Of a stretch of DNA of 64,000 bases, positions 24,686 through 40,582 are shown piece after piece. The stretch is from Roseicella frigidaeris (lineage in GTDB: Bacteria; Pseudomonadota; Alphaproteobacteria; Acetobacterales; Acetobacteraceae). How positions within the stretch are numbered: the stretch's first letter is position 1; each line of letters starts with the position of its first letter. A program made the position numbers and the translations under genes. The notes beneath the pieces are model-generated. The model was not told the DNA's origin, ran no database searches, and saw only the letters and a list, made by a program, of their open reading frames with translations. The DNA lies in NCBI RefSeq assembly GCF_003258945.1, contig NZ_QLIX01000007.1, forward strand, positions 1 through 64,000. Reading direction: 5' to 3'.

Positions 24686-25408
24686 TCAGCCATCCTCCAC
24701 CACGGCGCGCCCGGTGACGAAGCGCCAGTGATGCCAGAGCAGCCGCGCCGCCAGCGAGCGCCAGGGCGCCCAACCCTGGGCGATCGCCGCCAGCGCCTTC
24801 GGCCCCGGCCGCGCCGGCAGCTCCAGCAGATGCGCGGCGCTCGCCGCCAGGGCGAGGTCGCCGCTCGGGAAGATGTCGGGCCGGGCCTCGGCGAAGAGCA
24901 GGTGGATCTCCGCCGTCCAGGGGCCGAGGCCGCGGATGGCGGCGATATGCGCGACGGCCGCCGCATCCGGCATCCCGGCGAGGCCGGCGAGGTCGAGCCG
25001 CCCCTCCAGGCAGGCGGCGGCCAGGGAGCGGGCATGCGCCGCCTTCGGCCGCGAGAGGCCGGCCACGCCGCAGAGCGTGGCGTCGTCGAGGGCGAGCAGC
25101 CCCGCCGGCTCCAGCGCCCCGGGCAATGCCGCCAGCCGCTTCCAGATCGCCGAGGCCGCCTGGTTGCTGATCTGCTGGCCGCAGATCGCCCGCAGCAGGC
25201 CGGGAAAGCCCGGCTGGCGCACGCGCCAGGCCAGCGGCCCCGCCGCCGGCTCGATCACGGCGAGCCGGGGATCGGCCGCGACCAGCGCGGCGATGCCGGC
25301 CCGCGCCCAGTCCGGCGCATGCGGGAAGGCGGCATCCGCCCGGGGCGGCGGGGGAGAGGGGCACGGCGGCGGGGTGGCTGAAGAGGGGGGAACCATCCCC
25401 GCCGCCAT
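24686..25408 (-). CDS. AlkA-like DNA-3-methyladenine glycosylase (HhH-GPD)
   Basis: Base-excision repair glycosylase of about 240 residues without the N-terminal TATA-like domain of E. coli AlkA. The core shows ICGQQISNQAASAIWKRL, a helix-hairpin-helix in IRGLGPWTAEIHLL, and the catalytic Asp in FPSGDLALAAS. It should excise alkylated purines. The start at 25408 (MAAGMVPP) or the Met four codons later cannot be separated. It is transcribed away from the response regulator, with a 307-base intergenic region between them. Confidence 0.83.
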   Translation of the reverse strand: MAAGMVPPSSATPPPCPSPPPPRADAAFPHAPDWARAGIAALVAADPRLAVIEPAAGPLAWRVRQPGFPGLLRAICGQQISNQAASAIWKRLAALPGALEPAGLLALDDATLCGVAGLSRPKAAHARSLAAACLEGRLDLAGLAGMPDAAAVAHIAAIRGLGPWTAEIHLLFAEARPDIFPSGDLALAASAAHLLELPARPGPKALAAIAQGWAPWRSLAARLLWHHWRFVTGRAVVEDG

Positions 25409-25627
25409 AGAGCGATCGGCATTGCGCGGCCATGGCTGCGGACCAGGCGACGCACCGACTGCCCCTCACGGCCATCGCTGGGGCGCCCGCCCTGGGGGGA
25501 GGGCGACTCGGCGCCTCGATGGTCGCGCTCTGCGGGCCGGCCCCGGGAGGGGATGTGGGCGGGGCCGGCCACTCCCCGAAGCTGCGCCCCGGATGTTGCT
25601 GCGCGAAGCCCCGGGACATGCCGAATT

Positions 25628-25670
25628 GCAACGCCCTGCAACAGGCGCCGCTTCGGCAACATGGCGCAAC
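25628..25670 (+). promoter_or_regulatory. Four phased GCAAC half-sites upstream of the OmpR-type regulator
   Basis: GCAAC occurs at 25628, 25638, 25656 and 25666: two pairs, each with a 10-base step, with pair starts 28 bases apart. Direct repeats one helical turn apart are how OmpR/PhoB-class regulators bind, and the repeats end 45 bases before the regulator start. One inverted match (GTTGC) lies at 25595. The remainder of the 307-base gap (25409-25715) holds no supported gene. Confidence 0.45.
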
Positions 25671-25715
25671 AGCCACCCGGCCAAGACCGCAACGGCACGC
25701 TATGCTGGCCGGGCC

Positions 25716-26435
25716 ATGGAGCCGCAACCCCATATCCTGGTCGTCGATGACGACCGCGAGATCCGCGACCTTCTGTCGAAATTCCTCGAACGCCAGGGGA
25801 TGCGCGTCTCCGCCGCGCGCGACGCGAAGGAGGCCCGCAAGCTCTGGCCGCTCGGCCGCTACCACCTGGTGGTGCTCGACCTGATGCTGCCGGGCGAGAG
25901 CGGGCTCGACTTCGCCAAATGGCTGCGCAGCCAGGGCGAGGTGCCGATCGTCATGCTGACGGCGATGAGCGAGGAGACCGACCGCATCGTCGGGCTCGAG
26001 CTCGGCGCCGACGACTATCTCGGCAAGCCCTTCAACCCGCGCGAGCTGCTGGCCCGCATCCGCGCCGTGCTGCGCCGGGCGAGCGGCGAGCCGGGGGCGG
26101 CGAAGGAGCCGCCGGCCCGGGCCATCCGCTTCTCCGGCTGGACGCTGGAGCCGACGCGCCGCCGGCTGCTGAACCCGGACGGCGCCGAGGTGCCGCTCAC
26201 CGGCGGCGAGTACGAGCTGCTGCAGGTGCTGGTGGAGCGCCCGAACCGGGTGCTGACCCGCGACATGCTGATGGACCTGCTGCGCGGCCGCCAGGCCGGC
26301 CCCTTCGACCGGGCGATCGACGTCGCCGTCTCCCGCCTCCGCCGCAAGCTCGAGGATGACGGGCGCAACCCGAACCTCATCAAGACGGTGCGGGGCGGCG
26401 GCTACGTACTGGCGGCGACGGTGGAGAAGGGTTGA
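25716..26435 (+). CDS. OmpR-family response regulator
   Basis: A 239-residue DNA-binding response regulator. The receiver domain (about 6-120) has the acidic pocket VVDDD, phosphoacceptor Asp about 55 in VLDLMLPGE and Lys about 104 in YLGKPF. The C-terminal winged helix (about 140-235) ends in VSRLRRKLEDDG and IKTVRGGGYVLA. It is coupled to the histidine kinase by a TTGA overlap. A long upstream extension of the frame is rejected because the receiver starts at MEPQPHILVVDDD. The phased GCAAC sites upstream suggest autoregulation. Confidence 0.93.
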   Translation: MEPQPHILVVDDDREIRDLLSKFLERQGMRVSAARDAKEARKLWPLGRYHLVVLDLMLPGESGLDFAKWLRSQGEVPIVMLTAMSEETDRIVGLELGADDYLGKPFNPRELLARIRAVLRRASGEPGAAKEPPARAIRFSGWTLEPTRRRLLNPDGAEVPLTGGEYELLQVLVERPNRVLTRDMLMDLLRGRQAGPFDRAIDVAVSRLRRKLEDDGRNPNLIKTVRGGGYVLAATVEKG

Positions 26436-27850
26436 GCCAGGCCCCCGCCACGCCGGCGGCCGCGCCGTCGCCCCTGGTCACGCCGGCCCCCGCCAGGCAG
26501 GCCCCCGCCGCCTGGCGCTTCCGGCCGCGCAGCCTCGCCGGCCGCACCGCCCTGGTCCTGCTGCTGGCGCTGGCGGTGGTGCAGGCGGCCGGGCTCACCA
26601 TCCATGCGCTGGACCGCGTCGATCTGCAGCGCTTCGCCCAGGCGCGGGAGATCTCGCAGCGCTCGATCAGCGCCTGGCGCACCGTGCTGCTCGCCCCGCC
26701 CGACCGGCGGGCGCAGATGCTGGCCGAGATGGAGCTGCCGAGCAGCCTGACGGCGACGCTCGACGACCGGCCCCTGGCGCGGCCGGACCAGCCGCCGATG
26801 CCGTTGCCGGTGGCGCGGCAGCTCCGCCTCGACCTCTTCGCCGCCAGCCCGCCGCGCTACCGGCCGCGCGAGATCATCACCGCCTGGGAGCCGGGCGGGC
26901 CGAGCTTCATCGCCAGCCTCAGGCTGCCGAGCGGCGAGTGGCTGAACCTGCATATCCGCCTGCCGCCGCCCCGGCCCTGGCATTCCGAGACCTTCCTGAT
27001 CGCCTTCGTGGCGATGACGCTGGCGGCCGGGCTGCTCATCCTCTGGGCGGTGCGGCGGCTGACCTTCCCGGTGCGCGCCCTGGCCGAGGCCGCCGACCGG
27101 CTGGGCCGCGACGTGAACGCCCCGCCGATGCCCGAGCAGGGGCCGGCCGAGGTGGCGCGCGCGGCGCATGCCTTCAACACCATGGCCGAGCGCATCCGCC
27201 GCTTCGTCGGCGACCGCACCCAGATGCTCGCCGCCATCGGCCACGACCTGCGCACCCCGATCACCCGGCTGCGGCTGCGCGCCGAGTTCATGGACGATGA
27301 CGAGCAGCGCCGGAAGATGCTGGCCGATCTCGACGAGATGGAGGCGATGGTGGCGGCGACGCTGGCCTTCGCCCGGGACGACGCCGCGGCCGAGCCGACG
27401 GTCGCGGTGGACATCGCCGCGCTCTGCCGCACCGTGCTCGACGAGGCGGCGGATGCGCATCCCGACCTGGCCGAGGACATCGCCTATCGCGGGCCGGAGC
27501 GGCTGACGGCGCCGGCCCGGCCGGTGGCGCTGAAGCGGGCCATCGCCAACCTCGTCGGCAATGCGCTCGCCTATGGCGGGGCGGCGCAGCTCAGCCTCTC
27601 GCCGCCCGAGGGGCCGGGACGGCCGATCCATCTCAAGGTCGAGGATGACGGGCCGGGCATCCCGCTCGGCGAGCTCGAGGCGGTCTTCCAGCCCTTCCAC
27701 CGGCTGGAGGTCAGCCGCAACCGGGAGACCGGCGGCACCGGGCTCGGCCTGCCGATCGCCCGCAACATCTTCCGCGCCCATGGCGGCGACGTGGTGCTGC
27801 GCAACCGCCCCGAGGGCGGGCTGGCGGCGCTGGCGACGCTGCCGGCCTAG
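26432..27850 (+). CDS. EnvZ-type sensor histidine kinase (TTG start)
   Basis: A 472-residue inner-membrane kinase. It has TM1 (about 37-58), a periplasmic sensor segment of about 125 residues, TM2 (about 187-207), HAMP (208-260), a HisKA box with His about 271 in IGHDLRTPITRLRLR, and an HATPase with NLVGNALAYGG, DDGPGIP and GGTGLGLPIARN. No ATG exists before about residue 94. The only start that keeps both membrane segments is TTG at 26432, which overlaps the regulator stop and is preceded by GGAGAAGGG. The stimulus is unknown. Confidence 0.92.
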   Translation: MSQAPATPAAAPSPLVTPAPARQAPAAWRFRPRSLAGRTALVLLLALAVVQAAGLTIHALDRVDLQRFAQAREISQRSISAWRTVLLAPPDRRAQMLAEMELPSSLTATLDDRPLARPDQPPMPLPVARQLRLDLFAASPPRYRPREIITAWEPGGPSFIASLRLPSGEWLNLHIRLPPPRPWHSETFLIAFVAMTLAAGLLILWAVRRLTFPVRALAEAADRLGRDVNAPPMPEQGPAEVARAAHAFNTMAERIRRFVGDRTQMLAAIGHDLRTPITRLRLRAEFMDDDEQRRKMLADLDEMEAMVAATLAFARDDAAAEPTVAVDIAALCRTVLDEAADAHPDLAEDIAYRGPERLTAPARPVALKRAIANLVGNALAYGGAAQLSLSPPEGPGRPIHLKVEDDGPGIPLGELEAVFQPFHRLEVSRNRETGGTGLGLPIARNIFRAHGGDVVLRNRPEGGLAALATLPA

Positions 27851-28015: not shown

Positions 28016-29098
28016 TCAGGCGGCGGGCCGCATCGCCTGGACGCGCGGCATCACCTCCTCGGCGAAGAGGCGGATCGTCCCGTGCCGCACCGCCCGCGGC
28101 ACGCCATAGGTGGCGTTGCTGACGACGAGGTAGTTGAAGCCGAGATCGAGGATCTCCCGCACCCGCCGCGCCACCGTCTCCGGCGAGCCGACGAGGTTCT
28201 GCGCGATATAGCCATCGAGGTTGGCCGGGTCCGAGAGCTGCCGCAGGTTGGCGAACATGCGGTTGAACTGCTGGTAGCCCGGGATGTCGCCCCAGGGCGC
28301 GTGGTCGGACTGGTAGTGCTCGACCTGCAGGGCGAAGAAGCGCGGCAGGTGCTCCAGCGCCTGGGCACGGGCCTCCTCGTCGGTGCGGGCGACGAAGCAT
28401 TTCACCGAGATCGGCCTGGTCACGGCGGGGCTGCCGCCGAGCGCCGCGGTGCGCGCCGTCCAGGTCTCGAGGATGCGGCGCAGCAGCTTGTCGGGGAAGG
28501 AGGAGAGGCAGAGCGGCGGCAGGCCGAGCTCGGCCATGATGGCGGCGCTCTCCGGACTGCCGATGGCGCCGTAGAAGCTGGGGCGCGCGCCCTCGGGCGC
28601 CGGCCGCAGCGTGGTCGGGCGCGGCCAGTGCACATGCTGCCCGGCGAAGGTGACCGGCCCGCCGGCGAGCGCCGCCCGGGTGAACTCCCAGGTCTCGCGG
28701 AAGCGGTCGCGCGCCGTCTCCATGCCGATGCCGAAGGCGTCGTATTCCGACTTCGCCGTGCCGCGGCCCATGCCGATATGCAGCGGGCCCTGCGCCAGGG
28801 TCTGCAGCATCGCCACATCCTCGGCGAAGCGCACCGGGTCGTACCAGGGCAGCACCATCACCGCGGTGCCGAGGCCGAGCCCCGGGCAGGCGGCGGCGAG
28901 ATGCGAGAGGAAGAGCAGCGGGTTGGGCTGCGGGTAGTAGTCGCTGAAATGGTGCTCGACCATCCAGGCGGCGTCGTAGCCGAGGCGGTGCAGCAGCTCG
29001 GCATCGGCGATGGCCTCGCGGTAGAGCTGGCGGTCCGTCAGCCCCTCCTCCCCCACGGCGCCGATCTGGTAGCCGAAACGCGCGGCGGCCTCTGTCAT
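28016..29098 (-). CDS. Luciferase-like (LLM) flavin-dependent monooxygenase, probably FMN type
   Basis: A 360-residue TIM-barrel protein of the bacterial luciferase superfamily. The EHHFSDY motif near residue 50 and the long GxGMGRGTAKSEYDAFG segment are more typical of FMN-dependent alkanal-monooxygenase-like members than of F420-dependent ones. The start follows GGGGAGGGACGG. It is divergent from the next luciferase-like gene across 127 bases. Substrate unknown; it may border the F420 island without being part of it. Confidence 0.8.
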   Translation of the reverse strand: MTEAAARFGYQIGAVGEEGLTDRQLYREAIADAELLHRLGYDAAWMVEHHFSDYYPQPNPLLFLSHLAAACPGLGLGTAVMVLPWYDPVRFAEDVAMLQTLAQGPLHIGMGRGTAKSEYDAFGIGMETARDRFRETWEFTRAALAGGPVTFAGQHVHWPRPTTLRPAPEGARPSFYGAIGSPESAAIMAELGLPPLCLSSFPDKLLRRILETWTARTAALGGSPAVTRPISVKCFVARTDEEARAQALEHLPRFFALQVEHYQSDHAPWGDIPGYQQFNRMFANLRQLSDPANLDGYIAQNLVGSPETVARRVREILDLGFNYLVVSNATYGVPRAVRHGTIRLFAEEVMPRVQAMRPAA

Positions 29099-29225
29099 CC
29101 GTCCCTCCCCGGGATCTGGTCTTGCCGGAAAGGGTAGCCTCCTATCGGCCCGGAAGGGAACCGGCGGGGGTGCAGTGGCGGCCCCGGCCGGACCGGCCCA
29201 TAATGCCGGGGAGAGGAGACGCAGC

Positions 29226-30086
29226 ATGGATCTCGGACGTCTCGGCGTTTGGTACCCCACCGACCGGCTCGACGCCGCCGGGCTGCGCGCCCTGCTGGGC
29301 GTGGTCGAGGGGCATGGCTACGGCACGCTCTGGTATCCGGAATCCACCGGCTACGAGAGCATCGCGCTGGCCGGCTTCCTGCTGGCGAACAGCCGCCGTC
29401 TCGCCATCGGCAGCTCCATCGCCAATATCTATGCGCGCGACCCCTTCACCGCGCGCCGCGCCCTCGCCACGCTGAACCGGCTGCATGGCGGCCGCTTCGC
29501 GCTCGGCCTCGGCGTCAGCCACGTGCCGCTGGTCGAGGGGGTGCGCGGCCATCGCTACGACAAGCCGGTGCCGGCGATGCGCGCCTATCTCGAGGGCATG
29601 CGGAAGGGCGGCAAGGGCGCGCCGGAGGGCAAGGTGCTGCTCGCCGCCCTCGGGCCGCGGATGCTCGCCCTGGCGGCGGCGGAGACGGATGGCGCCGTCC
29701 CCTACAACGTGACGCCCGAGCATACCCGCCAGGCGGCGCAGGCGCTCGGGCCGGGCAAGGTGCTGGCGGTGGAGCAGAAGGTCTGCGTCGAGACCGACAA
29801 GGCCCGCGCCCGCGCCCTCGGCCGCAAGGAGCTGGCGCGCTACATGGTGCTGCCGAATTACGTGAACAACTGGCTGCGGCTCGGCTTCACCGAGGCCGAC
29901 CTCGCCGAGGGCGGCAGCGACCGCTTCATCGACGCCATGGTGCTCTCGGGCGACGCCGATGCCGTGAAGGCCGGGCTGCGGGCGCATTTCGAGGCCGGCG
30001 CCACGCATGTCTGCCTCCAGCCGGTGACCGAGGAGGGCGACGTGGCGGCGCGCGACGCCATGATCGCCGCCCTCGCCGACACCTGA
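29226..30086 (+). CDS. Luciferase-like oxidoreductase, probably F420-dependent (MSMEG_4141-like)
   Basis: A 286-residue luciferase-superfamily protein starting [13 protein letters not shown], with [17 protein letters not shown] in the barrel. The opening and size resemble the group of probable F420-dependent oxidoreductases named after MSMEG_4141. It has a strong ribosome site (GGGGAGAGGAG). The stop lies 14 bases before fgd, so it is very probably the first gene of the fgd-cofEDC operon, which supports an F420-linked role. Substrate unknown. Confidence 0.8.
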
Positions 30087-30100
30087 CAGGGACAACATCC

Positions 30101-31105
30101 ATGCTGAAGCTCGGATATAAGGCCTCGGCGGAGCAATTCGCCCCGGCGCGGCTGCTGGACTACGGCATCCTCGCCGAGCAGGCCGGCTTCGAGTCCTGCT
30201 TCATCTCCGACCATTTCCAACCCTGGAAGCACACCGACGGGCACGCGCCGAACTCGCTGGTCTGGCTCGGCGCGCTCGGGGCGCGCACCGAGCGGCTGGT
30301 GATCGGCACCAGCGTGCTGACGCCGACCTTCCGCTACCATCCCTCCATCGTCGCCCAGGCCTTCGGCACGCTGGGCGCGATGTATCCCGGCCGCGTCATC
30401 CTCGGCATCGGCACCGGCGAGGGGCTGAACGAGGTGCCCTCGACCGGCGCGCCCTGGCCGGAGTTCAAGGAGCGCTTCGCCCGGATGCGCGAGGCGGTGC
30501 AGCTCATGCGCCGGCTCTGGACCGAGGAGCGCGTCAGCTTCGAGGGCCAGTACTACCGCACCGAGAAGGCGACGATCTACGACCGGCCGGAGCGGCCGGT
30601 GCCGGTCTATGTCGCCGCCGCCGGCGCGCTGGTGGCGAAATATGCCGGCCGCAGCGGCGACGGCTTCATCTGCACCAGCGGCAAGAAGCCCGAGCTCTAC
30701 ACCGAGACGCTGCTGCCCAATGTCGCGGCGGGGCTGGAGGCGGCGGCGGCGCCGAAGCCGGACTATGAGCGGATGATCGAGATCAAGGTCTCCTTCGACA
30801 CCGACCGCGAGCGGGCGATGCAGGATACCCGGCATTGGGCCGCCCTCGCCCTCTCGCCCGAGGAGAAGATGCAGGTCGAGGACCCGGTCGAGATGGAGCG
30901 GCTCGCCGATGCGCTGCCGGTCGAGCGGGCGGCGAGCCGCTGGATCGTCTCCGCCGACCCGGAGGAGCAGGTGGAGAAGATCGGGTATTACATCGGCCTC
31001 GGCTTCAACCACCTCGTCTTCCACGCCCCCGGCCCCGACCAGGCGCGCTTCCTGACCCTGTTCGGGGAGCGGGTGCTGCCCCTGCTGCGCCGCCGCTTCG
31101 GGTGA
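30101..31105 (+). CDS. fgd: Fgd-type F420-dependent glucose-6-phosphate dehydrogenase
   Basis: Reduces coenzyme F420 with glucose-6-phosphate, giving 6-phosphogluconolactone and F420H2. It has 334 residues against about 336 in mycobacterial Fgd1, and shares [21 protein letters not shown] (Asp 37, His 38 and Trp 42 in the catalytic positions), [16 protein letters not shown]-type [24 protein letters not shown] and [13 protein letters not shown]. This is far closer to Fgd than to generic luciferase-like enzymes. The stop overlaps cofE (GTGA), which places the reductase in the same transcript as cofactor synthesis. Unusual for Proteobacteria. Confidence 0.9.
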
Positions 31106-31842
31106 CCGATACGCTGAGCCTGACCGCCCTGCCGGACCTGCCCATGGTCCGGGCGGGCGACGACCTCGCGGCGCTGCTGCAGGCCGGGCTCGACCACGCC
31201 GGGCTGCGGCCCGCGCCGGGCGACGTGCTCGCCGTGGCGCAGAAGGTGGTGAGCAAGGCGGAGGGGCGCAGCGTGCCCCTCGCCTCCGTCACCCCCTCGG
31301 CCGCGGCGCTCCGCCTCGCCGCGGAGACCGGCAAGGACCCGCGGCTGGTCGAGCTGATCCTCTCGGAATCCGTGCGCGTCGTGCGGTCGCGGCCGAACCT
31401 CATCATCGTCGAGCACCGGCTCGGCTGCGTCATGGCCAATGCCGGCATCGACCAGTCCAATCTCGGCCAGGAGGGGCACGCGCTGCTGCTGCCGGCGGAT
31501 CCCGATGCCAGCGCCGCCCGCCTCGCCGCGCGGCTCGGCCTCGCCGTCGTCGTCACCGACAGCTTCGGCCGGGCCTGGCGGCGCGGCACGGTCGGGGTGG
31601 CGATCGGCGCCGCCGGCCTGCCCGCCCTGCTCGACCTGCGCGGCCAGCCGGACCTCTTCGGCCGCAGCCTGCAGGTGAGCATCACCGGCTTCGCCGACGA
31701 GATCGCCGCCGCCGCCGGCCTCGTCATGGGCCAGGGCGCCGAGGGGCGGCCGGCGGTGCTGCTGCGCGGCCTGGCCTGGACGGCGCCGCCCCTCCCCGCC
31801 GCGGAGCTCATCCGTAGCGAGGCGGAGGACCTGTTCCGGTGA
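31102..31842 (+). CDS. cofE: CofE: coenzyme F420 gamma-glutamyl ligase, single-domain form
   Basis: Adds glutamate residues to F420-0 using GTP. A GTG start overlaps the fgd stop, giving 246 residues, the size of archaeal CofE. Family features include [53 protein letters not shown] and the [16 protein letters not shown] stretch. The actinobacterial FbiB homologue carries an extra nitroreductase domain that reduces dehydro-F420; it is absent here. It is coupled to cofD by GTGA. Confidence 0.92.
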
Positions 31843-32759
31843 TCGTCGCGCTCTCGGGCGGCATCGGCGGGGCGAAGCTGGCGCTCGGCCTGGCGCAGCT
31901 CCTGCCGCCGGAGGAGCTGCTGGTCGTCGCCAATACCGGCGATGATTTCGAGCATCTCGGCCTCGCCATCAGCCCCGATATCGACACCCTCACCTACACC
32001 CTCGCCGGCCTCGACAATCCGGAGCTCGGCTGGGGCCGGCGCGACGAGAGCTGGGCCTGCATGGAGACCCTGGCGGCGCTCGGCGGCCCGGACTGGTTCC
32101 GCCTCGGCGACCGCGACCTGGCGCTGCACCTGCTGCGCACCGCGCGCCTGCGGGCCGGGGAGACGCTCTCGGCCGTCACCGACGATATCCGCCGCCGCCT
32201 CGGCATCGGCGCCCGCATCCTGCCGATGAGCGACGACCCGGTGCGCACCCGCATCGGCACCGATACCGGCTGGCTCGACTTCCAGGACTGGTTCGTCGGC
32301 CGGCGCGCCGGGCCGGCGGTGCGGGCGATCGACTTCGCCGGCGCTGGCAAGGCCCGGCCGCTGCCGGCGGTGCTCGCGGCGCTGGCCGCCCGGCCGCGCG
32401 CCGTGGTGATCTGCCCAAGCAACCCCTTCATCAGCATCGAGCCGATCCTCGCCCTGCCGGGGATGCGCGAGGCGATCCAGGCGAGCGGCGCGCCCGTCAT
32501 CGCCGTCTCGCCCATCATCGCCGGCCAGGCGGTGAAGGGGCCGACGGCGAAGATCTTCGCCGAGCTCGGCACCCCGCCCACCGCCGCCGCCGTCGCCGCC
32601 CGCTATGGCGGGCTGCTGCATGGCTTCGTCATGGAGGAGGGCGACGAGGCCGCCGGCATCGCCCCCCGCGTCTTCCGCGCCGCGACGCTGATGCGGAGCC
32701 TCGAGGACAAGGTGTCGCTGGCCCGCGCCGTGCTCGCCGCCGCCGAGGCGCTGCGGTGA
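31839..32759 (+). CDS. cofD: CofD: 2-phospho-L-lactate (or analogue) transferase
   Basis: Joins the phospho-hydroxyacid moiety, supplied as a GDP-activated donor, to Fo, giving F420-0 or a variant. It has 306 residues with the GTG start inside the cofE stop. The N-terminal [15 protein letters not shown] nucleotide loop, [28 protein letters not shown] and [13 protein letters not shown] are characteristic of CofD/FbiA. GTGA coupling continues to cofC. Which hydroxyacid is transferred cannot be read from the sequence by eye. Confidence 0.94.
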
Positions 32760-33421
32760 GCATGGGCGCGATCTGGGCCATCCTGCCGGTGAAGGAGATG
32801 CAGGGCTCGAAGCAGCGCCTCTCGCCGCTGCTCTCGCCGGAGGAGCGGGTGGCGCTGATGCGGGTGATGGCGGGCGAGGTGCTGGACGCGCTCTGCGCCG
32901 CGCGCGGCCTGGCCGGCGTCGCCGTCGTCACCCTCGATGCCTGGACCACGGCCGAGGCGGCGCGGCGCGGCGCCCGGGTGATCACCGAGGGCGCGCGCGA
33001 GGGGCATACCGGCAGCGTCACCGCCGCGGCGCGGCTTCTGGCGGCGGAGGGCGCCGCGGGCGTGCTGACCATGCCGGGCGACATCCCGGCGGTGACGCCG
33101 GCCGAGGTGGAGGCGCTGGTCGCGGCGCATGGCGCGGCGCCGGCCTTCACCATCGCCCCCTCGCATGACGAGATGGGCTCGAACGGCGTGGTGCTCTCGC
33201 CGCCGGACGCCGTGCCGCTGCGCTTCGGCGATGACAGCTACCGCCCGCACCTCGCCGCGGCCCGGGCCCAGGGCATCGCGCCGCGGGTGGTGCCCCTGCC
33301 GGGCGTGGCGATGGATATCGACCATCCGGCGGATCTGGCGATGTTCGCCGGCCTTGCCCTGGCGCGCCCGACCCGGACGCTGGCCTGGCTGCGCGAGAGC
33401 GGCGTGCTGGCGCGGCTGTAA
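32756..33421 (+). CDS. cofC: CofC: phospholactate (or 3-phosphoglycerate/PEP) guanylyltransferase
   Basis: Activates a phosphorylated hydroxyacid with GTP for CofD. It has 221 residues and a nucleotidyltransferase fold: ILPVKEMQGSKQRLSPLL at the N-terminus, LTMPGDIPAVTPAEVEAL and GSNGVVLSPPDAVPLRFGDDS, then DIDHPADLAMF. A GTG at 32756 overlaps the cofD stop; ATG at 32762 is the alternative. Substrate choice varies in this family: 2-phospholactate in archaea, PEP in actinobacteria, 3-phosphoglycerate in some Proteobacteria. It ends the four-gene fgd-cofEDC run. Confidence 0.92.
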   Translation: MSMGAIWAILPVKEMQGSKQRLSPLLSPEERVALMRVMAGEVLDALCAARGLAGVAVVTLDAWTTAEAARRGARVITEGAREGHTGSVTAAARLLAAEGAAGVLTMPGDIPAVTPAEVEALVAAHGAAPAFTIAPSHDEMGSNGVVLSPPDAVPLRFGDDSYRPHLAAARAQGIAPRVVPLPGVAMDIDHPADLAMFAGLALARPTRTLAWLRESGVLARL

Positions 33422-33456
33422 GGATCGCCGCGCAGCGGCGAACATCTCCTGCGAAC

Positions 33457-33550
33457 GGACTGGTCCTTGACCGGTCCGAGGCCCCGAATGGGGCCCGCGG
33501 CCTATGCCGCGAAGCCAAGCAAACCGGAGGTTTGCGCCCGGCGTCTGAGG
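33457..33550 (+). repeat. Family A palindromic repeat, copy A3
   Basis: Lies between the converging cofC and cofGH genes. Hairpins: GGACTGG/CCGGTCC (33457-33477), GGCCCC-GAAT-GGGGCC, CGCGGC-CTAT-GCCGCG (33496-33511) and CAAACC-GGA-GGTTTG, the last preceded by the conserved GCGAAGCCAAGC. Compared with A2, the first GAAT hairpin and the middle hairpin have different stem bases that still pair. A separate small hairpin, CGCCGC-GCA-GCGGCG, lies at 33426-33440 just after cofC. Confidence 0.7.
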
Positions 33551-33551
33551 G

Positions 33552-33579
33552 GGCCGTTGATGGGTCACCATCAACGGCC
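33552..33579. terminator. Perfect 11-bp hairpin between convergent cofC and cofGH
   Basis: GGCCGTTGATG and CATCAACGGCC form a perfect 11-bp stem around loop GGTCAC, ending eight bases from the cofGH stop codon. Read from the minus strand it follows the cofGH stop directly, and from the plus strand it lies beyond cofC, so it could serve as a two-way terminator. There is no long U-run, so it might act instead as an mRNA-end stabiliser. Confidence 0.55.
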
Positions 33580-33586
33580 GCTGGTA

Positions 33587-35932
<2,346 letters not shown>

Positions 35933-35995
35933 GCTTGCGCTCCCCCGCCACTCCCCCGCATCGTGGGCGCTGACCGGGCCGGATGCAATGCGCCC

Positions 35996-36022
35996 CCGGG
36001 GCGCTCCCCAGGAGCGCCCCGG
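35996..36022. promoter_or_regulatory. Perfect 12-bp hairpin in the cofGH/LLM divergent promoter region
   Basis: CCGGGGCGCTCC and GGAGCGCCCCGG pair perfectly around loop CCA. The hairpin lies 63 bases upstream of the cofGH start and 41 bases upstream of the divergent luciferase-like gene at 36064. It could be an operator for both genes or a leader RNA structure; the sequence alone does not decide. No other feature was seen in this 131-base region. Confidence 0.4.
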
Positions 36023-36063
36023 AGCGATGCCCCGAGGCAGCCCGCCCCAGCGGAGGAAACAGC

Positions 36064-37017
36064 ATGCAGATCGGCTTCAGCGCGCCGAGCGGTGGCCCGC
36101 TCGCCACCCCGGACGCCCTGACCCGGCTGGCGCAGGAGGCCGAGTCCCTGGGCTTCGGCTACGCCACCGTCAGCGACCACGTGGTGATCCCGACCGACAT
36201 CCACGCGAAATATCCCTATACCGACAGCGGCGAATTCCCCGCCAGCTCGCGCGGCGAGCGGCACGAGCAGCTCACGCAGGTGATGTTCCTCGCGGCGCGG
36301 ACGACGCGGCTGCGCTTCGTCACCTCGGTCATGGTGGTGCCGCACCGGCCGGCGCTGCTGACCGCGAAGATCCTCTCGACCATCGATGTCCTCTCCGGCG
36401 GCCGGCTGACGCTCGGCATCGGCGCGGGCTGGCTGCGCGAGGAGTTCGAGGCGCTGCAGGTGCCGGACTTCGCCGCCCGCGGCAAGGTGACGGACGAGTA
36501 CATCCTGGCGGCCAAGACCCTCTGGACAGAGCCGAAGCCGCGCTTTGCCGGCGAGCATGTCCGCTTCGGCGACATCACCTTCGAGCCGAAGCCGGTGCAG
36601 CGGGGCGGGCCGCCGATCTGGGTGGGCGGCGAGAGCGGCCCGGCGCTGCGCCGCACGGCCCGGCTCGGCGATGCCTGGTACCCGATCGGCACCAACCCCG
36701 CCTTCCCGCTGGAGAGCCTCGCCCGCTACCGCGCCGCGGTGGCGAAGCTGCGGGGCCTGGCCGAGAAGGAGGGCCGCGACCCCGGCGCCATCGGCCTCGC
36801 CTACCGCGTCCAGCGCTACGGGCCGGAGGTGCCGCCGACCGCGGGGGATGGCGAGCGGCGGCTCTTCTCCGGCCAGCCGGCGCAGATCGCCGACGACCTG
36901 AAGGCGCTGCGGGACATGGGCGTCATCGGCGTCGACCTCACCTTCCCCGGCGACACGGTCGAGGCGGTGCTGGCGAGCATGCGCGCCTTCCGCGACGATG
37001 CGATGCGGGGGCTCTGA
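36064..37017 (+). CDS. Probable F420-dependent luciferase-like oxidoreductase (Rv2161c-like)
   Basis: A 317-residue luciferase-superfamily protein beginning MQIGFSAPSGGPLATPD, with YATVSDHVVIPTDIHAKYPY, GGRLTLGIGAGWLREEFEAL and a PPIWVGGESGPALRR segment, the pattern of the Rv2161c-type probable F420-dependent group. The ribosome site GGAGGAAAC fixes the start. The next gene begins one base after its stop, and both diverge from cofGH, which makes F420 use likely. Substrate unknown. Confidence 0.83.
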   Translation: MQIGFSAPSGGPLATPDALTRLAQEAESLGFGYATVSDHVVIPTDIHAKYPYTDSGEFPASSRGERHEQLTQVMFLAARTTRLRFVTSVMVVPHRPALLTAKILSTIDVLSGGRLTLGIGAGWLREEFEALQVPDFAARGKVTDEYILAAKTLWTEPKPRFAGEHVRFGDITFEPKPVQRGGPPIWVGGESGPALRRTARLGDAWYPIGTNPAFPLESLARYRAAVAKLRGLAEKEGRDPGAIGLAYRVQRYGPEVPPTAGDGERRLFSGQPAQIADDLKALRDMGVIGVDLTFPGDTVEAVLASMRAFRDDAMRGL

Positions 37018-37018
37018 G

Positions 37019-38047
37019 ATGCGGCTCGGCCTCACCCTCGGCATGGGCGCCGGCGTCGACATCGCGCTGGTGCTGGAAGCGGAACGCCTCGGCTACAGCA
37101 GCGTCTGGTGCGGCGAGAGCTACGGCAACGACGCCGTCAGCCCGGTCGCCTGGGTGCTCGCCCGCACCTCGCGCATCAAGGCCGGCACCGGCATCATGCA
37201 GATGCCCGCCCGCACCCCGGCCTGCGCCGCCAGCACGGCGATGACGCTGCAGATGCTCTCGGGCGACCGCTTCCTCTGCGGCGTCGGCCCCTCCGGCCCG
37301 CAGGTGGTGGAGGGCTGGCACGGCCAGCCCTACGGCACGCCGATGACCCGCACGCGCGAATACATCTCCATCATCCGGGCGATCGTCGCGCGCGAGGCGC
37401 CGCTGGAGCACCAGGGCGAGCATTACCGCATCCCCTATGACGGGCCGGACGCGACCGGGCTCGGCAAGCCGCTGAAGAGCATCCTGCACGGCCGGCCGCT
37501 GCGCTTCTACTGCGCCTCCATCACCCCGGGCGGCATGCGGCTGGCGGGCGAGGTGGCCGACGGCAACCTGCCGATCTTCATGTCGCCCGAGGGCGCCGAC
37601 CTCGTCGTGAAGCCGACGCTCGAGGGCATGGCGAAGGCGGGCAAGCCGGCCGACCTCTCGGGCTTCGACATCGCGCCCTACACCAAGATCCGCCTCGGCG
37701 ACGACCTCCAGGCCTGCCGGGACGCGGTGAAGCCGGAGCTCGCGCTCTATATCGGCGGCATGGGCGCGCGGGGGAAGAATTTCTACAACGACTATGTCCG
37801 CCGCCTCGGCTACCCCGATGCGGCGGCGGCGATCCAGGACGCCTATCTGGCGCGGCGCCAGCGCGAGGCCGCGGCGCTGGTGCCGGACAAGCTGGTGGAC
37901 GAGATCGCGCTGGTCGGGCCGGCCGACCGCATCCGCGGCCGGCTGCAGGACTGGAAGGCGGTGGCGCGCGACGGGAAGATCGGCACGCTGGTCCTGACCG
38001 GCGCCACCCAGGCCGCGCTGCGCGTCGTGGCGGAGGCGGTGCTGTGA
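37019..38047 (+). CDS. Probable F420-dependent luciferase-like oxidoreductase (Rv3520c-like)
   Basis: A 342-residue protein opening MRLGLTLGMGAGVDIALVLE, with GERYGND-type GESYGNDAVSP, RIKAGTGIMQMPARTPA, VGPSGPQVVEGWHGQPYG and TRTREYISIIRAIV. The SGPQVVEGWxGQPY string is characteristic of the Rv3520c-type F420-dependent group. It starts one base after the previous luciferase-like gene and overlaps the NHL-repeat gene by GTGA, so three genes are co-transcribed. Substrate unknown. Confidence 0.83.
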   Translation: MRLGLTLGMGAGVDIALVLEAERLGYSSVWCGESYGNDAVSPVAWVLARTSRIKAGTGIMQMPARTPACAASTAMTLQMLSGDRFLCGVGPSGPQVVEGWHGQPYGTPMTRTREYISIIRAIVAREAPLEHQGEHYRIPYDGPDATGLGKPLKSILHGRPLRFYCASITPGGMRLAGEVADGNLPIFMSPEGADLVVKPTLEGMAKAGKPADLSGFDIAPYTKIRLGDDLQACRDAVKPELALYIGGMGARGKNFYNDYVRRLGYPDAAAAIQDAYLARRQREAAALVPDKLVDEIALVGPADRIRGRLQDWKAVARDGKIGTLVLTGATQAALRVVAEAVL

Positions 38048-39000
38048 GCGGCCCCTTCGGCGAGGGCGGTTTCCGCTACGAGCCGGTGCCCGGCTGGGGC
38101 AGCCTGCCGCCGGGATGGTCGCTGAAGGAGGTGGCCGCCGTCGCGGTGGACAGCCAGGACCGCGTCTACGCCTTCAACCGCGGCGAGCACCCGATGGTGG
38201 TCTTCGACCGCGCGGGCCGCTTCCTGACCTCCTGGGGCGAGGGCCTCTTCACCCGCGCGCATGGCCTGCATATCGGCCCCGACGACATGCTCTGGTGCAC
38301 CGATGACGGCGACCACACGGTGCGCAAATGCACGCCGGAGGGCGAGGTGCTGATGACCATCGGCCTGCCCGGCCGGCCGGCGCCCTTCATGTCGGGCCGG
38401 CCCTTCAACCGCTGCACCCATACCGCGCTCTCGCCCGAGGGCGACCTCTACGTCTCCGACGGCTACGGCAATGCCGCGGTGCATAAATACGCGCCGGATG
38501 GCCGCCACCTCCTCTCCTGGGGGCGGCCCGGCACCGGGCCGGGCGAGTTCAACCTGCCGCACAACATCGTCTGCGACGAGGCCGGCCTCGTCTATGTCGC
38601 GGACCGGGAGAGCCACCGCATCCAGATCTTCGACGGCAAGGGCGGCGTCCAGGGCGAATGGACGAATGTCCACCGCCCCTGCGCCCTCTTCCTCGGCAAG
38701 GGCCGCTGCCCCTGCTGCTATGTCGGCGAGCTCGGCCCGCAGCTCCCGGTGAACCAGGCCTTCCCCAATCTCGGCCCGCGCATCAGCGTGCTCGACATGC
38801 AGGGCAAGCCGCTCTCGCGCTTCGGCACGCTCGGCGACGGCGCGGGGCAGTTCTGGTCGCCGCACGGGCTGGCGGTGGATTCCCGGGGCGACCTCTATGT
38901 CGGCGAGGTCAGCTTCACCGCCTGGCCGCGCTACCATGACGGGCAGCCGCCGCCGCCCGAGGGCGTGCGCTGCCTGCAGAAATACCGGCGTCTCGGCTGA
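38044..39000 (+). CDS. NHL-repeat beta-propeller protein (amidating-lyase-like)
   Basis: A 318-residue cytoplasmic beta-propeller. NHL-type blades recur: AVDSQDRVYAFNRGEHPMVV, ALSPEGDLYVSDGYGNAAVH, IVCDEAGLVYVADRESHRIQ and AVDSRGDLYVGEV. Many such bacterial proteins are annotated as peptidyl-alpha-hydroxyglycine alpha-amidating-lyase-like, but that activity is unproven for them. A GKGRCPCCYVGEL segment with three Cys is an unusual insertion. A GTG start overlaps the preceding LLM stop. No signal peptide is seen. Confidence 0.75.
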   Translation: MSGPFGEGGFRYEPVPGWGSLPPGWSLKEVAAVAVDSQDRVYAFNRGEHPMVVFDRAGRFLTSWGEGLFTRAHGLHIGPDDMLWCTDDGDHTVRKCTPEGEVLMTIGLPGRPAPFMSGRPFNRCTHTALSPEGDLYVSDGYGNAAVHKYAPDGRHLLSWGRPGTGPGEFNLPHNIVCDEAGLVYVADRESHRIQIFDGKGGVQGEWTNVHRPCALFLGKGRCPCCYVGELGPQLPVNQAFPNLGPRISVLDMQGKPLSRFGTLGDGAGQFWSPHGLAVDSRGDLYVGEVSFTAWPRYHDGQPPPPEGVRCLQKYRRLG

Positions 39001-39010
39001 GCCCCGCGCC

Positions 39011-40582
39011 ATGGCCGCCGGTCTCGACCCTGGTCTCGCCACCCGCCTCGACCGCCTGGCCCGGCGCCTGCCCCGGACCTATCCCGGCCCGGGCGGCGCG
39101 CTCGCGGTGCTGCGCCAGGGCGAGGTGCTGCTGCGCCATGCCTGGGGCTTCGCCAATGCCGAGCGGCGCATCCCCTTCACGCCGCAGACCCTGTTCCGCC
39201 TCTGCTCGATCACCAAGCAGTTCACCTGCGCGGCGATGCTGGAGGCCTGCCCGGACCCGGCCGTGCTCGATGCGGCGATCCGCGCCCGGCTGCCGCGCCT
39301 CGGCGCCGCGGCGCCCGGTGCGCTGCACTGCGCGCACAACCAGTCGGGCCTGCGCGACTACTGGGCGGTCGCCATGCTGCATGGCTCGCCGGTCGAGGCG
39401 CCCTTCGGCGATGCCGAGGCGATGCGGGTCATCGCCGGCACCGCCTCGCTGCACTTCGCGCCGGGCACGCGCTATTCCTATGTGAACCAGAATTTCCGCC
39501 TGCTCTCCGAGGCGCTGGAGACGGAGACCGGCCAGGGCTTCGCGGCGCTGCTGCGCCGCCTCTTCGAGCGCGCCGGCATGCCGACCGCCTTCCTCGCCGC
39601 CGATACCCGCGCCATGCCGGATGGCACCGAGGGCTATGAGGGCAGCCAGGCCGGCGGCTTCCGCGCCGCCGAGAACCGCATCCTCTGGACCGGCGATGCC
39701 GGGCTCGGCGCCAGCCTCGAGGACATGATCGCCTGGGAGCGCTTCCTCGATGCCGGGCGGGACGATCCTGGCTCGCTGCCCGCCCGACTCGCCGCGCCGG
39801 TTGCCTTCGCCGGCGGCGCGCCGGCCCCCTACGGCTTCGGCCTGGCGCGCGGCACCGCCTTCGGCCATGCCCTGCTCGGCCATGGCGGGGCGCTGCGCGG
39901 CTGGCGCAGCCACCGGCTCTACGTCCCGGCCGAGCGGATCTCGGTGGTCGTGCTGTTCAACCACCTCTCGGACGCGCATGCGGCGGCGATGGAGGCGCTC
40001 GCCACCGTGCTGGACGCGCCCATGCCGGGCCCCGATGCCGCGCTGCCGATGCCGGCCTGGGCGGGCGCCTATGCCGAGCCGGAGACCGGCCTGCTCGCCC
40101 GCATCGAGCCGGCGATGCCGGGCCGGCTGCGGCTGCGCTTCGGCCATTCGCCGGAGTTGCTCGACCTGCAGCCGGATGGCAGCGCGACGAACGGCCAGAC
40201 CAGGCTGCAGCCAGGCCCGGCCGGCCTTTGGCTGGAGCGGCCACAGGAGAATTTCCGCAGTCGCCTCGAGCCGCTCAACGGCATGCCGGCCACGGACATC
40301 GCCGGCCGCTATCGCTGCGAGGAGCTGGAGGCGGAGCTGCACATCGCCGCGGCCGGCGGCCTGCCCTATGGCGGCTTCGCCGGTGTCCTCGGCCAGGGCC
40401 GGATGGAGCTGCTGGAGCCGGTGGCGCAGGATGTCTGGACCCTGCCCTGCCCCCGCGCGCTGGACCACACGCCGCCGGGCGACTGGACCCTCGCCTTCCG
40501 CCGCGGCGCGGACGGGCAGGTGGAGGGCGTTCGCCTCGGCTGCTGGCTGGCGCGCGGGCTGGACTACCGCCGCATCGGGTAG
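39011..40582 (+). CDS. dap: D-aminopeptidase (DAP, penicillin-recognising serine hydrolase)
   Basis: Releases N-terminal D-residues from peptides, amides and esters. It has 523 residues against about 520 for the Ochrobactrum anthropi enzyme, and follows it closely: RYPGPGG-type TYPGPGGALAVL near the N-terminus, Ser 66-x-x-Lys 69 in SITKQFTCA, Tyr 157-Val-Asn 159, His 291-Gly-Gly in LLGHGGALRGWR, and the closing GCWLARGLDYRRIG. Two C-terminal beta domains follow the catalytic domain, as in DAP. It lies ten bases after the NHL gene. Confidence 0.9.
   Translation: MAAGLDPGLATRLDRLARRLPRTYPGPGGALAVLRQGEVLLRHAWGFANAERRIPFTPQTLFRLCSITKQFTCAAMLEACPDPAVLDAAIRARLPRLGAAAPGALHCAHNQSGLRDYWAVAMLHGSPVEAPFGDAEAMRVIAGTASLHFAPGTRYSYVNQNFRLLSEALETETGQGFAALLRRLFERAGMPTAFLAADTRAMPDGTEGYEGSQAGGFRAAENRILWTGDAGLGASLEDMIAWERFLDAGRDDPGSLPARLAAPVAFAGGAPAPYGFGLARGTAFGHALLGHGGALRGWRSHRLYVPAERISVVVLFNHLSDAHAAAMEALATVLDAPMPGPDAALPMPAWAGAYAEPETGLLARIEPAMPGRLRLRFGHSPELLDLQPDGSATNGQTRLQPGPAGLWLERPQENFRSRLEPLNGMPATDIAGRYRCEELEAELHIAAAGGLPYGGFAGVLGQGRMELLEPVAQDVWTLPCPRALDHTPPGDWTLAFRRGADGQVEGVRLGCWLARGLDYRRIG

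What the first reader, a model, noticed from the sequence alone, without database searches (positions are those of the whole stretch)
29226..38047. Complete coenzyme F420 island with Fgd in an alphaproteobacterium
Fgd, CofE, CofD and CofC are translationally coupled (three GTGA overlaps), the fused CofGH lies convergent, and F420-type luciferase-like genes start the operon and diverge from cofGH. F420 synthesis is classically archaeal and actinobacterial, and proteobacterial cases are few. A co-transcribed Fgd means this organism likely makes F420H2 from glucose-6-phosphate, as mycobacteria do, which has rarely been described outside Actinobacteria and Chloroflexi.
Basis: partly seen in the sequence, partly recalled or inferred. 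Interest (0 to 1): 0.7.

Follow-up and report, generated by a model that had tools for sequence, protein, structure and literature searches.

The report
F420 cofactor gene cluster with Fgd
This stretch carries the genes that an alphaproteobacterium needs to make the redox cofactor F420 and to charge it with electrons from glucose-6-phosphate; the cluster is real and shared by many relatives, so it is not a rarity, but here the usual NADP enzyme for that sugar step appears to be missing.

Summary
Confirmed: an F420 cluster at 29226-38047, i.e. an LLM oxidoreductase, fgd, cofE, cofD, cofC (three GTGA overlaps), convergent cofGH and two divergent LLM genes. Each cof gene and fgd passes an NCBIfam equivalog cut-off.

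The rarity claim fails. The 80 best loci kept from named genomes (Fgd 76-91% identical) are titled alphaproteobacterial or proteobacterial. Fgd is over cut-off in 58 of 248 sampled genomes of the window's family, and a 2021 review already predicts alphaproteobacterial Fgd. The CofD tree shows long residence, not a recent import.

(1) No zwf was found in this 98.5%-complete genome, yet gnd is present, so Fgd is the only glucose-6-phosphate dehydrogenase recognised. 31 of 58 Fgd genomes in the family lack zwf and all 31 keep gnd; but 27 genomes without zwf or Fgd keep gnd too. (2) No F420:NADP reductase passes in 13 Fgd-bearing genomes, unlike 7 of 7 proteobacterial plasmid clusters read. (3) No dehydro-F420 reductase was recognised, and CofC has His at the FbiD-Leu92 position in 72 of 72 rows, so the linker chemistry is unsettled.

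Verdict: new member of a known kind, with two testable open points.

The parts
29226..30086 (+). LLM-class oxidoreductase, TIGR03620 family (F420-type); first gene of the run; 14 nt before fgd
   Evidence: NCBIfam TIGR03620 282 bits, cut-off 220; start and spacing read
30101..31105 (+). [quoted passage not shown]
   Evidence: TIGR03554 485.9 bits, cut-off 420; best PDB match 5lxe Rhodococcus FGD1, 468 bits; active-site residues kept
31102..31842 (+). cofE: F420-0 glutamate ligase, single domain, no FbiB C-terminal reductase domain
   Evidence: TIGR01916 253 bits, cut-off 181; PDB CofE 168 bits; GTGA overlap with fgd
31839..32759 (+). cofD: transferase that puts the phospho-acid onto FO
   Evidence: TIGR01819 296 bits, cut-off 257; equally near archaeal CofD (200 bits) and FbiA (199 bits) in PDB
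32756..33421 (+). cofC: guanylyltransferase; His84 at the Mycetohabitans-Met91 / FbiD-Leu92 position, Gly158 at the 3-PG-diagnostic Ser162 position
   Evidence: TIGR03552 122 bits, cut-off 105; residue counts, numbering checked; model pLDDT 96, best fold 7p97
33422..33586 (.). intergenic stretch of about seven short hairpins between the convergent cofC and cofGH, with a perfect 12-bp inverted repeat at 33552-33579; possibly a two-way terminator (guess)
   Evidence: fold z -6.3, 0 of 200 shuffles as stable, but in plain energy not out of range for this GC-rich window; inverted repeat; no terminator-like T-run
33587..35932 (-). cofGH (fbiC): fused FO synthase, two radical-SAM domains
   Evidence: NF006687 1127 bits, cut-off 1018; CofG and CofH domain models both over cut-off
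35983..37017 (+). LLM oxidoreductase TIGR03619, diverges from cofGH
   Evidence: 231 bits, cut-off 167; beside cofGH in many relatives
36998..38047 (+). LLM oxidoreductase TIGR03559
   Evidence: 350 bits, cut-off 335; follows TIGR03619 in many relatives

Best explanation
The region is the fgd-type F420 module of Acetobacteraceae, Reyranella and Bradyrhizobium-like Alphaproteobacteria. CofGH makes FO; CofC and CofD add a phospho-acid linker; CofE adds the glutamate tail; Fgd then reduces F420 with glucose-6-phosphate; LLM-class oxidoreductases coded at both ends are likely users of F420H2. Because no zwf was found but a short NAD-type gnd is present, Fgd is probably the main and perhaps the only enzyme that oxidises glucose-6-phosphate in this organism, so the first step of its oxidative pentose phosphate path would run on F420. 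Shown from sequence: the gene set, family membership, active-site residues, synteny and placement in a CofD tree. Inferred: that F420 is made, that Fgd uses it in the cell, which linker is used, and what the LLM enzymes act on.
For: All five enzymes over curated cut-offs. fgd-cofE-cofD-cofC in this order and strand in 66 of the 80 loci from named genomes, with convergent cofGH behind in 39 (many loci are cut by contig ends). Fgd 60% identical to the assayed R. jostii enzyme (201 of 333), with its phosphate-binding Lys197, Lys258 and Arg282 kept in 93 of 93 rows (some genomes are in twice). fgd sits with gnd in other genomes: gnd-cofGH-fgd-cofE-cofD-cofC in G288 (L135), gnd about 4 and 9 kb from fgd in G103 and G050, gnd-fgd-pgi on one Rhodococcus plasmid, gnd-glpX-fgd-tkt-tal on another. 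zwf: no candidate in G000 even in the loose first look; gnd present, TIGR00872 368 bits. No F420:NADP reductase over cut-off in 13 Fgd-bearing genomes. CofD tree: window in a starred clade (100/99) with Dankookia, Roseicella, Paracraurococcus and a Roseomonas MAG.
Against: 27 of 248 family genomes lack both zwf and Fgd and still carry gnd, so gnd without zwf does not by itself show that Fgd feeds it; a gluconate route is possible and was not searched. The zwf-Fgd association (zwf missing in 31 of 58 with Fgd, 42 of 190 without; Fisher p 1e-5) ignores shared ancestry. 7 of the 13 Fgd genomes first searched do have zwf. The genome is a draft in 87 contigs (98.5% complete), so a missed gene is not excluded. 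A non-Zwf type of glucose-6-phosphate dehydrogenase was not searched. No reductase for dehydro-F420 was recognised, so the final product is uncertain. F420 was found only in traces in the two Alphaproteobacteria tested by others (PMC8498797, section read).
Confidence: 0.8

Rival explanations
1. Fgd is an accessory F420 reducer only; glucose-6-phosphate flux is small, gnd is fed by gluconate and gluconokinase, and F420H2 merely serves LLM-type catabolic reductases.
For: 27 of 248 family genomes have gnd without zwf or Fgd; G000 has 24 matches to the Fgd model, i.e. many LLM genes; in genera g256, g296, g300 and g306 members without Fgd also lack zwf.
Against: All 31 Fgd genomes without zwf keep gnd, against 27 of 42 without Fgd and zwf; fgd-gnd neighbourhoods in several lineages.
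Confidence: 0.35
2. The product is not classical F420 but a variant: dehydro-F420 or another linker, because no dehydro-F420 reductase was recognised and CofC has an altered substrate pocket.
For: FbiB C-terminal domain model: over cut-off in 0 of 13 Fgd genomes; all nine G000 nitroreductase places score 25.5 bits or less, against 163 bits for the nitroreductase beside cofDC of Thermomicrobium. His at FbiD-Leu92, a PEP-contacting residue (PMC8764529), in 72 of 72 rows; 7 of 7 npdG-type proteobacterial CofCs aligned do not have it.
Against: The 3-PG-diagnostic Ser162 is Gly in 72 of 72 rows, so 3PG-F420 is unlikely. 2-phospho-L-lactate was the best substrate of the other CofCs assayed, Oligotropha and Paracoccus among them, and would need no reductase; the authors caution that the archaeal CofD used may bias this. 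One G000 nitroreductase (L126) is 32% identical to the Thermomicrobium one over 201 aa and could be a distant stand-in.
Confidence: 0.2
3. The cluster was recently imported from an actinobacterium.
For: Fgd is best known from Actinobacteria; Rhodococcus plasmids carry Fgds up to 61.6% identical.
Against: All five genomes of the genus searched carry Fgd; window CofD lies in an alphaproteobacterial fgd-type clade (99/97, 23 rows) and with its own relatives (100/99); base composition of the region matches the window.
Confidence: 0.03

Closest known systems
Alphaproteobacterial F420 clusters with Fgd predicted by Ney et al. 2017, as reported in Grinter and Greening 2021 (PMC8498797; passages and sections read; Ney not held)
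   Same: F420 genes with Fgd in Alphaproteobacteria; fused CofGH
   Different: The review says Fgd occurs in addition to Fno; in G000 and in 13 of 13 Fgd-bearing genomes searched no Fno passes the cut-off
npdG-type proteobacterial F420 clusters on plasmids (Sinorhizobium, Aromatoleum, Paracoccus, Leisingera, Paraburkholderia, Croceicoccus, Variovorax)
   Same: cofC, cofD and cofG/cofH in all seven, cofE listed in six, an LLM gene nearby in six; CofD of four of the seven falls in the same starred proteobacterial group as the window's
   Different: 7 of 7 carry npdG and none lists fgd in the stretch read; at E 1e-60 the plasmid collection has Fgd relatives only in Rhodococcus and Nocardia (17 records)
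Mycobacterial and rhodococcal Fgd1
   Same: Same equivalog family, 60% identity to R. jostii Fgd, same phosphate-binding residues
   Different: Mycobacteria keep NADP-type ZWF1 and ZWF2; no zwf found here
FbiD/FbiA/FbiB pathway of mycobacteria and Thermomicrobium (phosphoenolpyruvate route)
   Same: CofC and CofD homologues
   Different: No dehydro-F420 reductase domain or FbiE-like enzyme recognised here

Membership tests
[quoted passage not shown]
   485.9 bits, 488.2 in the genome search
[quoted passage not shown] jostii numbering) | tested here: met
   All three kept in the window and in 93 of 93 rows; mutagenesis in PMC5352752, abstract and passages read
[quoted passage not shown]
   Needs purified enzyme
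F420 biosynthesis (CofC, CofD, CofE, CofGH) | All four present and over a curated cut-off | tested here: met
F420 biosynthesis (CofC, CofD, CofE, CofGH) | F420 present in cells | not testable with these tools
   Needs extracts
Phosphoenolpyruvate route (FbiB or FbiE dehydro-F420 reductase) | FbiB C-terminal domain or stand-alone homologue | tested here: not met
   0 of 13 Fgd-bearing genomes over cut-off, 0 matches in G000; nine of nine G000 nitroreductase places at 25.5 bits or less against 163.4 for the Thermomicrobium control; an unrelated or distant reductase is not excluded
3PG-F420 route | Ser or Thr at Mycetohabitans CofC position 162 | tested here: not met
   Gly in the window and in 72 of 72 rows (position checked)
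Fno (npdG)-driven F420 reduction | TIGR01915 over cut-off | tested here: not met
   No match in G000; 0 of 13 Fgd-bearing genomes over cut-off, best 49.6 bits against 149.8
Mycobacterium-like dual G6PDH arrangement (Fgd beside Zwf) | zwf (TIGR00871) present | tested here: not met
   0 candidates in G000; control rang in 9 of 14 known genomes

The most novel reading that the evidence does not exclude
In this organism and in about half of the Fgd-bearing Acetobacteraceae, Fgd has taken over from the NADP enzyme Zwf: the oxidative pentose phosphate path starts only through F420, followed by a short NAD-type Gnd, so that the step usually credited with making NADPH makes F420H2, and no known F420:NADP reductase is there to convert it. 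The cofactor itself may be made through an alphaproteobacterial CofC with a His in the substrate pocket and without any known dehydro-F420 reductase, leaving room for an undescribed linker form.
Probability: 0.3. Interest if true: 0.65.

Novelty: new member of a known kind. Interest (0 to 1): 0.38.

Why it matters
The cluster as such is expected from published surveys. What would matter is a bacterium outside Actinobacteria whose only route for oxidising glucose-6-phosphate depends on F420: it would turn F420 from a niche cofactor into a central one there and give a clean genetic test of what F420H2 is for. The unexplained linker step (no dehydro-F420 reductase recognised, altered CofC pocket) is a direct, cheap question for mass spectrometry and could add a new form of the cofactor or point to the missing reductase.

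Tried and rejected
Rejected: recent transfer. Rejected: 3PG-F420, although the CofC's best PDB match by sequence and by fold is the 3-PG enzyme 7p97. Rejected as sufficient evidence: gnd presence alone, because 27 genomes without zwf or Fgd also have it. Looked for a dehydro-F420 reductase among the nine PF00881 places of G000: all nine scanned against NCBIfam (seven; L114, which I had first read on the wrong strand, and L151); the nearest to the Thermomicrobium enzyme is L126, 32% over 201 aa, too weak to name. Entner-Doudoroff dehydratase: nothing over cut-off in G000. Not searched: gluconokinase, glucose dehydrogenase, 6-phosphogluconolactonase, SDR-type glucose-6-phosphate dehydrogenase. 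A tree of Fgd, CofC or CofGH was not built; outside groups at hand were too few (mostly Rhodococcus and Nocardia).
Full report
Observation. The window holds, on the + strand, an LLM oxidoreductase (29226-30086), fgd (30101-31105), cofE (31102-31842), cofD (31839-32759) and cofC (32756-33421); on the - strand cofGH (33587-35932); then on the + strand two LLM oxidoreductases (35983-37017, 36998-38047). Fgd, CofE, CofD, CofC and CofGH each pass an NCBIfam equivalog cut-off, and the three LLM genes pass F420-type models. The three GTGA overlaps are there. G+C by codon position follows these frames.

Host and distribution. The nearest named Fgds are those of Dankookia rubra (91%) and Roseicella aerolata (90%). 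In the window's family 58 of 248 genomes, in 25 of 77 genera, have Fgd over the cut-off. In the class, 46 of 289 sampled genomes have CofGH at E 1e-100 or better, 42 of them over the cut-off; of 44 of these 46 that I searched, 6 have Fgd over the cut-off, and the other two, G000 and G050, were known to have it, so 8 of 46. Fgd is thus common in some alphaproteobacterial lines and absent from most cofGH-bearing genomes of the class. Of the 80 named loci, 66 show fgd-cofE-cofD-cofC in this order on one strand and 39 show convergent cofGH behind it; many loci are cut by contig ends. They include Acetobacteraceae, Reyranella, Vineibacter and Bradyrhizobium.

Literature. [quoted passage not shown] F420 had been found in traces in Oligotropha and Paracoccus. 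The primary paper, Ney et al. 2017, is not held. In ten library searches I saw no paper on Fgd as the only glucose-6-phosphate dehydrogenase or on the missing reductase in Alphaproteobacteria; most hits were seen as listings with the start of the abstract, and most subscription journals are not in the library.

Fgd. It is 60% identical to the R. jostii enzyme (201 of 333 positions), whose Lys197, Lys258 and Arg282 were shown by mutagenesis to bind the phosphate (PMC5352752, abstract and passages). These three, and the residues at His39, Trp43 and Glu108, are the same in 93 of 93 alphaproteobacterial rows (a few genomes are present twice). That the last three are catalytic is recalled, not from a call.

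Is Fgd the only enzyme for this step? zwf (TIGR00871) gave no candidate in G000, and no match in G001, G003, G019, G025 or G050, which also carry Fgd; the other 7 of the 13 Fgd genomes do have it. In the family sample, 31 of 58 Fgd genomes lack zwf, against 42 of 190 without Fgd (Fisher p 1e-5, not corrected for kinship; by genus, 15 of 25 Fgd genera have at least one member without zwf). gnd (TIGR00872) is present in all 31 Fgd genomes without zwf, and in G000 at 368 bits. Against this, 27 genomes with neither zwf nor Fgd have gnd too, and in four genera (g256, g296, g300, g306) members without Fgd lack zwf as well. No edd over cut-off in G000. Neighbourhoods help: gnd-cofGH-fgd-cofE-cofD-cofC in G288, gnd near fgd in G103 and G050, a cluster of 8 loci whose representative, from a Reyranella bin, is gnd, gnd-fgd-pgi and gnd-glpX-fgd-tkt-tal on two Rhodococcus plasmids; a third Rhodococcus plasmid shows no such genes around fgd and the Nocardia stretch bears no annotation. 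In G000 itself gnd is not near fgd. I read this as good support that Fgd serves the pentose phosphate path, and as moderate support that it is the sole entry here.

Reducing partner. Fno (TIGR01915) is over cut-off in 0 of 13 Fgd genomes, G000 included; among the three other genomes of that search one, G045, has it. By contrast 7 of 7 proteobacterial plasmid clusters that I read with cofC, cofD and cofG/cofH carry npdG and list no fgd in the stretch shown (in the Sinorhizobium record no cofE is listed; an eighth record, Novosphingobium, lists only cofE and cofD). Proteobacterial clusters thus come in an fgd form and an npdG form.

Linker step. The FbiB C-terminal model is over cut-off in 0 of 16 genomes (best sub-threshold 51.7 bits). 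As a control, the separate nitroreductase beside cofDC in Thermomicrobium scores 163 bits (itself below the curated 250, but far above the rest), while the nine G000 nitroreductase places reach at most 25.5. CofC has Gly at the position whose Ser marks 3-PG use, in 72 of 72 rows, and His where FbiD has the PEP-contacting Leu92, also 72 of 72 (positions checked; a few genomes are in twice; roles of the residues from PMC8764529, parts 1-3 of the text, the discussion and passages read). The seven npdG-type CofCs aligned do not have that His. The CofC model is good (pLDDT 96) and is nearest to the 3-PG enzyme 7p97, then FbiD. So either 2-phospho-L-lactate is used, or dehydro-F420 is reduced by an unrecognised enzyme, or the cofactor differs.

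History. In a CofD tree of 39 rows the window sits with Dankookia, Roseicella, Paracraurococcus and a Roseomonas MAG (100/99), within an fgd-type alphaproteobacterial clade of 23 rows (99/97), inside a proteobacterial group that also holds four npdG-type rows and two further fgd-bearing genomes, G094 and G288 (98/94); three npdG-type rows (Paracoccus, Leisingera, Variovorax) lie outside it, and fgd-type rows need two changes on the tree. Some rows have long branches. This speaks for long residence, not for a recent donor; no species tree was compared. A donor for Fgd was not determined.

Verdict. The gene cluster is real and correctly named. It is a new member of a known kind. The remaining interest lies in the apparent loss of zwf and in the unsettled linker chemistry.

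Noticed in passing
window 33422-33586: About seven consecutive short GC-rich hairpins fill the gap between convergent cofC and cofGH (fold z -6.3), with a perfect 12-bp inverted repeat at 33552-33579. In plain energy it is not exceptional among 355 tiles of this window. In the relative G003 the two genes almost abut, so the stretch is not conserved.
   Followed up: partly
window 24873-27850: An OmpR/EnvZ-like response regulator and sensor kinase pair lies upstream, also found in G003 and Dankookia rubra; whether it controls the F420 genes is unknown.
   Followed up: no
window 28016-29260, - strand: A further LLM-class protein that passes the cut-off of no NCBIfam model diverges from the first gene of the cluster.
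   Followed up: no
window 38044-40582: An NHL-repeat protein overlaps the last LLM gene by GTGA and is followed by a D-aminopeptidase (PRK13128, 663 bits); both are also found in G003 and Dankookia rubra. They could be co-transcribed with the LLM genes.
   Followed up: partly
L074, L086, L089, L103 (after cofD): Some relatives have fgd-cofE-cofD with no cofC found next to it; in L089 a short-chain dehydrogenase follows cofD.
   Followed up: partly
L066:9430-10050, - strand: A small kinase with a weak shikimate-kinase match (possibly a gluconokinase, not tested) lies just upstream of fgd; its cluster has four loci.
   Followed up: no
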